A stretch of DNA of 64,000 nucleotides from Flavobacteriia bacterium (lineage in GTDB: Bacteria; Bacteroidota; Bacteroidia; Flavobacteriales_D; Crocinitomicaceae): assembly GCA_016183815.1 (NCBI GenBank), contig JACPDW010000010.1:124001-188000 (forward strand), written 5' to 3'. Position numbers and translations under genes: made by a program. The notes beneath the pieces are model-generated. The model had not been told where the DNA came from, did no database searches, and saw only the letters and a program-made list of their open reading frames with translations. The number at the start of each line of letters is the position of its first letter. The first letter of the stretch is position 1. Below are positions 3,453 through 55,972 of this stretch, in pieces.

Positions 3453-3512
3453 GTTGTTTTGTTTGAAATTATACAAAAAAATACATTTATAAATATGCTT
3501 AAAATAATATGT

Positions 3513-3533
3513 ATCCCCGAAATAAATCGGGAT
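3513..3533 (-). terminator. Hairpin between the ketosynthase operon and the alcohol dehydrogenase gene
   Basis: On the + strand the arms are ATCCCCGA and TCGGGAT around a 6-nt AATAAA loop, with one bulged C. It lies downstream of the leftward ketosynthase operon and 61 bp upstream of the dehydrogenase start. No long T run follows on the minus strand, so termination may be weak; it may instead belong to the adjoining repeat element or the leader RNA. Confidence 0.4.
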
Positions 3534-3540
3534 TGAAAAA

Positions 3541-3606
3541 TGCCGATACAATATGAAAATAGACAAATTTTAATTGGTCTATCTTGAATATGTAATCGGT
3601 ATTATT
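3541..3606 (-). repeat. Dispersed intergenic element, copy 1
   Basis: Read on the minus strand, the first 41 nt match the element at 55823-55911 at 38 of 41 positions: AATAATACCGATTACA, one mismatch, ATTCAAGATAG, two mismatches, then CAATTAAAATT. A second shared block is TTTCATATTGTATCGGCA, against TTTCATGTCGTATCGGCG in copy 2. Copy 2 carries about 23 extra bases between the blocks. The ends hold an imperfect inverted pair (ACCGATTAC and GTATCGG). The element ends 89 bp upstream of the alcohol dehydrogenase ATG in the same orientation. Confidence 0.75.
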
Positions 3607-50799: not shown

Positions 50800-50876
50800 A
50801 CATTATTTTTTAGTTTTCAACACAATATAGAGAATAACTATTTCAACCCATTGTGATATAAAATTGGTCTATTTGT

Positions 50877-50892
50877 AATTTTACGTAAAATT
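50877..50892. promoter_or_regulatory. Perfect 16-bp palindrome in the tdk upstream region
   Basis: AATTTTACGTAAAATT is its own reverse complement. It lies 78 bp upstream of the tdk ATG and 68 bp upstream of the 50960 gene, so it could be an operator for either. A hairpin is less likely because there would be no loop. Confidence 0.4.
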
Positions 50893-55822: not shown

Positions 55823-55911
55823 AATAATACCGATTACAAATTCAAGATAGGTCAATTAAAATTATCTTCATTTCTGCCTTAGGCGGTGTCAATTTTCATG
55901 TCGTATCGGCG
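55823..55911 (+). repeat. Dispersed intergenic element, copy 2
   Basis: The first 41 nt match 3541-3606 (minus strand) at 38 of 41 positions, and the last block TTTCATGTCGTATCGGCG matches at 15 of 18. Between them copy 2 has an extra stretch with a small GCCT/AGGC hairpin. It ends 75 bp upstream of yicC in the same orientation, as copy 1 does for the alcohol dehydrogenase. The rest of 55651-55986 holds only the yicC promoter. Confidence 0.75.
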
Positions 55912-55942
55912 TGTTACCTATTATTTTTAGATGAATAAATAA

Positions 55943-55972
55943 TTGTATTTGGCATAAAATATATTAATTTTG
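55943..55972 (+). promoter_or_regulatory. Promoter of the yicC-gmk-nadD operon
   Basis: TTG (55943-55945), a 19-nt spacer and TAATTTTG (55965-55972) match the Bacteroidota -33/-7 consensus and spacing. The leader to ATG 55987 would be short, about 8 nt. It lies 31 bp downstream of repeat copy 2. Confidence 0.6.

What the first reader, a model, noticed from the sequence alone, without database searches (positions are those of the whole stretch)
3541..3606. Two-copy dispersed intergenic element placed the same way upstream of unrelated genes
Minus-strand 3541-3606 and plus-strand 55823-55911 share a 41-nt block at 38 of 41 positions and an 18-nt block at 15 of 18. Copy 2 has about 23 nt inserted between them. 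Both end 75-90 bp before a start codon and point in the gene's direction. This could be a small non-autonomous mobile element, a shared regulatory leader or a small RNA family. A weaker third candidate near 50861-50880 shares ATAGACCAATT.
Basis: seen in the sequence. Interest (0 to 1): 0.6.

Follow-up and report, generated by a model that had tools for sequence, protein, structure and literature searches.

The report
Miniature mobile DNA element, Flavobacteriaceae
The two repeats are copies of a roughly 110-160-letter piece of DNA without genes that has spread to dozens of places in this flavobacterial genome and in relatives from five genera; such miniature transposons are a known kind of thing, but this family appears undescribed, its helper enzyme was not found, and it carries an unusually well-kept DNA hairpin.

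Summary
The repeat is real, but it is neither two-copy nor a gene leader. The host genome holds 32 distinct places at E<1e-3; 14 of 240 genomes of the family, in 5 genera, hold full copies. The element has terminal inverted repeats (TNA|TACC-N16-TAGTYCAAT; decayed at this genome's own 3' ends) and makes 3-bp TNA target duplications: left and right 3-mers agree in 39 of 61 copies against 21.7 expected. Four of four tested insertions in relative G018 are empty in sister species, one base-exact: TTA against TTA[element]TTA. It has no Rfam match and no transposase gene. This is a MITE family that has moved since related species split. In the host the downstream neighbour is on the opposite strand in 22 of 30 copies, so 'placed the same way upstream of genes' does not hold. 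Two features are not routine. The 5' end and an inner third repeat form an imperfect hairpin with fixed bulges, kept by compensatory changes between genera while the 3' repeat drifts. No autonomous partner was found; G018, where the element moved recently, has no PF01609 transposase above cut-off. The open-access library searched holds no description.

The parts
3469..3604 (-). Full element, copy 1, including both copies of the target duplication (TAA at 3602-3604 and TAA at 3469-3471)
   Evidence: alignment of all copies and right-end match TTGTA|TAA; hit at E=4.8e-13 with the covariance model
3538..3601 (-).
   Evidence: folding; compensatory changes across genera
3503..3536 (-). Copy 1: optional AATCCCGATTTATTTCGGGGAT hairpin segment between units 2 and 3 (approximate limits)
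   Evidence: present in some copies only
3472..3500 (-). Copy 1: unit 3, decayed 3' terminal inverted repeat
   Evidence: alignment to other copies
55825..55957 (+). Full element, copy 2, including target duplication TAA at 55825-55827 and 55955-55957
   Evidence: E=3.4e-13 with the covariance model
55828..55909 (+). Copy 2: units 1 and 2, hairpin with the long tip variant (about 23 extra nt, TCTTCATTTCTGCCTTAGGCGGTGTC region)
   Evidence: the same extended tip occurs in L011, L017/L212, L021, L022, L026, L028, L213
55926..55954 (+). Copy 2: unit 3, 3' terminal inverted repeat (rc TGCCAAATACAATTATT)

Best explanation
[quoted passage not shown] Anatomy: three related units of about 30 bp in the order forward, reverse, reverse. 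Unit 1 is the 5' end, unit 2 lies inside and forms a bulged hairpin with unit 1, unit 3 is the 3' end. Units 1 and 3 are the terminal inverted repeats; what they share is the extreme TACC and an inner TAGTYCAAT 16 bp further in. SHOWN: it inserts at TNA and duplicates those 3 bp, it has moved since sister species split, it is nearly always intergenic and holds no transposase gene, and it occurs in five genera. INFERRED: a transposase supplied in trans binds the inner boxes, cuts at TACC and leaves the 3-bp stagger, as DDE enzymes do; the unit 1-unit 2 hairpin is kept because a folded DNA form or paired site at the 5' end helps movement. Effects on neighbouring genes are incidental and differ from site to site.
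For: About 32 distinct host copies and full-length copies in 14/240 genomes of 5 genera, plus two Flavobacterium MAGs. Direct 3-bp duplications: 39/61 against 21.7 expected, none of 100,000 shuffles as high; pairs TTA/TTA, TAA/TAA, TGA/TGA. Orthologous empty sites at 4/4 tested G018 insertions, base-exact at the L190 site in two sister species. A paralogous empty site in the host, L009 flank against L070. Ends TACC-N16-TAGTYCAAT on both sides in other genera. Hairpin covariation 0.215 against 0.102 shuffled and 0.046 or less when slid.
Against: No autonomous relative with the same ends was found, and G018 has no PF01609 transposase above cut-off, so the trans-acting enzyme and its DDE class are inferred. 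Covariation could partly reflect relatedness of the sequences or gene conversion between the arms.
Confidence: 0.87

Rival explanations
1. A cis-regulatory RNA leader or small RNA family: the hairpins act in the transcript of the downstream gene.
For: Both window copies lie shortly before co-oriented start codons; the hairpin is conserved with compensatory changes. Copy 1 lies just after a promoter-like TTG-N20-TATCTTTG and may be transcribed as a leader.
Against: Downstream neighbour on the opposite strand in 22/30 host copies; no Rfam match; G-U pairs are not in excess on the element strand (23 against 48 A-C); target duplications and empty sites show insertion, not inherited leaders.
Confidence: 0.04
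2. A REP-type palindrome or an IS200/IS605-type element moved as single-stranded DNA by a tyrosine (Y1) transposase that reads the hairpin.
For: Conserved hairpin with fixed bulges near one end; compensatory changes not followed by unit 3.
Against: Those enzymes make no target duplication (established knowledge), whereas a 3-bp duplication is shown here at an orthologous empty site; both ends carry inverted repeats. Y1 transposases were not searched for.
Confidence: 0.05
3. A cellular structural or terminator-like palindrome kept for its use between convergent genes, spread by recombination rather than transposition.
For: Copies are nearly all intergenic and in the host 12 of 30 lie between convergent neighbours. 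Some orthologous copies persist in several species of a genus, e.g. L121/L131/L132 and L140/L141/L145.
Against: No terminator-like hit around copy 1. Sparse distribution (14/240 genomes) and uneven copy number; sister species lack the insertions; exact 3-bp duplications.
Confidence: 0.04

Closest known systems
Bacterial MITEs in general, e.g. RUP of Streptococcus pneumoniae and Correia elements of Neisseria (from my own knowledge)
   Same: About 100-150 bp, AT-rich, terminal inverted repeats, short target duplication, dozens of intergenic copies, potential for secondary structure, no transposase gene.
   Different: Those duplicate TA and have known or proposed IS partners; here the duplication is TNA (3 bp), no partner was found, and an inner third unit forms a hairpin with the 5' end that is kept by compensatory changes.
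BrickBuilt MITE of Porphyromonas gingivalis (PMC4596501) and MITECca01 of Cardinium (PMC9769881), both Bacteroidota
   Same: Non-autonomous intergenic repeats of Bacteroidota with terminal inverted repeats.
   Different: BrickBuilt ends (GAGACCTTTGCA) and its 23-nt tandem repeats are unrelated in sequence, and its duplications vary in length; MITECca01 is compared in that paper with the IS982-family ISCca4. Neither paper describes these ends.
PIF/Harbinger and IS5/IS1031-type transposons (from my own knowledge)
   Same: Target duplication of TWA/TNA type.
   Different: Ends differ (TACC here), the host IS5-type transposase has no such ends, and G018 lacks PF01609 matches above cut-off.
REP sequences (Flavobacterium counts listed in PMC12306157)
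   Same: Dispersed intergenic palindromes.
   Different: This element is longer, has terminal repeats on both sides and makes a target duplication.

Membership tests
MITE | Short, multi-copy, dispersed | tested here: met
   105-160 bp, 32 distinct host places at E<1e-3
MITE | Terminal inverted repeats | tested here: met
   TACC-N16-TAGTYCAAT at both ends in other genera; TACCRAATACA at both ends in the host
MITE | Target site duplication of constant length | tested here: met
   3-bp TNA, 39/61 against 21.7 expected; exact at the L190 empty site
MITE | No transposase gene inside | tested here: met
   at most about 170 bp; larger spans between end matches hold no transposase
MITE | Shares its ends with an autonomous element that moves it | tested here: inconclusive
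   none found in the host or 240 genomes with TIR patterns; draft assemblies may hide it
IS5/IS1031 or PIF/Harbinger derived element | TWA/TNA duplication | tested here: met
IS5/IS1031 or PIF/Harbinger derived element | Related transposase with the same ends | tested here: not met
   host IS5-type transposase lacks these ends; no PF01609 above cut-off in G018
REP or IS200/IS605-type element | Insertion without target duplication | tested here: not met
   duplication shown
REP or IS200/IS605-type element | Associated Y1 (RAYT/TnpA) transposase | not tested
Cis-regulatory RNA leader | Constant orientation and position relative to the regulated gene | tested here: not met
   downstream neighbour same strand 8, opposite 22 in the host
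Cis-regulatory RNA leader | Membership of a described RNA family | tested here: not met
   no Rfam match

The most novel reading that the evidence does not exclude
The element is moved by a not-yet-recognised transposase that reads a folded, bulged DNA hairpin at one end and a plain inverted repeat at the other, yet makes a 3-bp target duplication. That would mix hairpin recognition with double-strand integration, and would explain both the compensatory changes in the hairpin and the missing conventional partner.
Probability: 0.12. Interest if true: 0.65.

Novelty: new member of a known kind. Interest (0 to 1): 0.4.

Why it matters
It adds a MITE family spread over several genera of Flavobacteriaceae that has moved since related species split, with a diagnostic end sequence and TNA target rule, useful for annotation and for finding its unknown helper. 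The compensatory changes in the unit 1-unit 2 hairpin are a concrete, testable hint that DNA folding matters to a transposon that otherwise looks like a double-strand cut type. At single sites it may alter expression: copy 1 lies between a promoter-like match and an alcohol dehydrogenase gene, and copy 2 supplies the TTG of a promoter-like match before yicC.

Tried and rejected
Third candidate at 50861: shares only an 11-mer, not a copy. RNA family: no Rfam hit. Plasmids and phages: no relevant match (one weak 37-bp Parabacteroides plasmid hit); exact-pattern scans of IMG/VR empty. Autonomous partner: end-pattern scans in host and relatives, host PF01609 loci, the ISAzo13 element at C25 about 57 kb and PF01609 in G018 all negative. 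G018:C1:6583 and C1:15794 looked like two ends of one long element, but do not face each other and are truncated copies. A shared binding site as the sole reason for the unit 1-unit 2 match: disfavoured, because unit 3 does not follow the same changes. Literature searches found no description of this family.

Full report
CHECK OF THE OBSERVATION. The similarity is real. The 41-nt block matches at 38/41 and the second block at 16/18 in my framing. Copy 1 used as query finds copy 2 at E=4e-11 in the 3.24-Mb genome. The stretch quoted is only the 5' part. Aligning all copies shows that the element continues about 45-70 bp further and ends in an inverted repeat of its start. With target duplications, copy 1 is 3469-3604 (minus) and copy 2 is 55825-55957 (plus). 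The third candidate shares only an 11-mer.

HOW MANY AND WHERE. A BLAST search finds about 40 places in the host genome. A covariance model built from 15 copies finds 32 distinct places at E<1e-3. Among 240 genomes of the family, 14 in five genera carry copies matching model positions 1-110. An exact pattern scan of GTDB contigs names two further Flavobacterium MAGs. Host copies run from near-identical to fragmentary, and some are interrupted by other small repeats, which suggests that the family has been present for a long time.

ANATOMY. Three related units of about 30 bp lie forward, reverse, reverse. In other genera both ends read TNA|TACC-N16-TAGTYCAAT with constant spacing; in the host the inner box of the 3' end has decayed. 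Units 1 and 2 form a hairpin with one unpaired base on each arm at fixed places, and a tip that ranges from a few bases to an extra segment of about 25 nt. Some copies carry an AATCCCGATTTTTTTCGGGGAT hairpin between units 2 and 3.

MOBILITY. The 3-mers left and right of the core agree in 39/61 non-duplicate copies against 21.7 expected, and no shuffle of 100,000 reached that. Only 6 are inverted complements, so these are direct duplications rather than part of the inverted ends. Four G018 insertion sites were tested against sister species by joining the flanks. All four are empty in both G099 and G100. At the L190 site both sisters read TATATCT-TTA-GGTCAAC exactly where G018 has TTA[element]TTA; the other three sites are contiguous but less well conserved at base level. 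A paralogous empty site is also present in the host (L009 flank against L070: CCTGTAATTTTC against CCTGTAA[TACC..AGTA]TAATTTTC).

HAIRPIN CONSTRAINT. Over 98 distinct aligned rows the unit 1-unit 2 pairing is kept in 85.9% of cells. The covariation score is 0.215 against 0.102 in shuffles (0/500) and 0.013-0.046 when slid. The main exchanges are AT/GC at 12-97, TA/CG at 13-96, GC/AT at 14-93 and TA/AT at 16-91. In other genomes unit 3 agrees with unit 1 in only 0.14-0.49 of copies at columns 12-16, where units 1 and 2 agree in 0.88-1.00, so a shared protein-binding sequence alone does not explain the match. There is no G-U excess on the element strand (23 G-U against 48 A-C), which argues against an RNA of that strand. 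Caveats: the sequences are related; the alignment was fitted to a similar model; the 98 rows include about a dozen palindrome matches on the opposite strand, but the hand-filtered count (79 rows) shows the same exchanges. Gene conversion between the hairpin arms could also keep them matched without selection for folding.

GENE CONTEXT. By a simple open-reading-frame neighbour call, host copies have a downstream neighbour on the same strand in 8 cases and on the opposite strand in 22, and nearly all are intergenic. The two window copies are therefore not typical. Copy 1 lies between a beta-ketoacyl synthase gene and an iron-containing alcohol dehydrogenase gene; copy 2 lies between divergent ribonuclease R and yicC genes. 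A TTG-N19-TAATTTTG match straddles the 3' end of copy 2, and a TTG-N20-TATCTTTG match lies just before copy 1. Such matches are common by chance (27 in the window against about 20 expected), so local promoter effects are only a suggestion. The consensus is from my own knowledge of Bacteroidota promoters.

HELPER ENZYME. Not found. End patterns in the host, in eight carriers and in 240 genomes give only short copies. The host has IS5-, IS1634- and ISAzo13-type transposases and a broken IS4-type fragment; no matching ends were seen at the loci examined. G018 has no PF01609 match above cut-off. Draft assemblies collapse long repeats, so absence is not proven, and other transposase families were not searched.

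MECHANISM AND VERDICT. Most likely a MITE moved in trans by a DDE-type transposase. Insertion, target duplication and movement since speciation are shown; the enzyme class and the role of the hairpin are inferred. It is filed as a new member of the MITE kind, not of any named IS family. The open-access literature searched holds no description of it; most subscription papers were not searchable.

Noticed in passing
Host genome loci L021, L072, L075, L076, L083: A second small palindromic repeat family, CCTGAGTTCGATTATTAAAATTGGATTCAG, lies inside or beside several copies of the element.
   Followed up: no
Window 3503-3536; L011, L012, L013, L015, L065, L212: An optional AATCCCGATTTTTTTCGGGGAT hairpin sits at one place inside some copies; it may be a separate tiny repeat.
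   Followed up: no
Host loci L024, L028, L120: A third repeat (AATCGAGGCTTTTCAAAAATTTGAATCCG...CCCGATTGTTTGCTTCGGGATGAGG) truncates copies of the element and interrupts an IS4-type transposase remnant on C23.
   Followed up: partly
L073 (57 bp) and L070:1096-1165 (70 bp): Internally deleted forms keep only the two ends, without unit 2, and have TWA flanks (TAA/TTA and TAA/TAA); the hairpin may not be strictly needed, or was lost after insertion.
   Followed up: partly
Host genome C22:88247, C28:537, C29:206886, C31:73335, C16:385464: Further elements with the same end formula (ATACC-N16-TAGTCCAAT) but different interiors, pointing to more subfamilies than the covariance model detects.
   Followed up: partly
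G018 L194-L198 and G100 L205: A second long-tip variant in another genus: an ACCTGCGGTGCGACTACGTGGTC segment near the hairpin tip, also seen next to unrelated sequence in L191 and L204 flanks.
   Followed up: no
Window 55943-55972: A TTG-N19-TAATTTTG promoter-like match before yicC, whose TTG lies inside the element's 3' repeat.
   Followed up: partly
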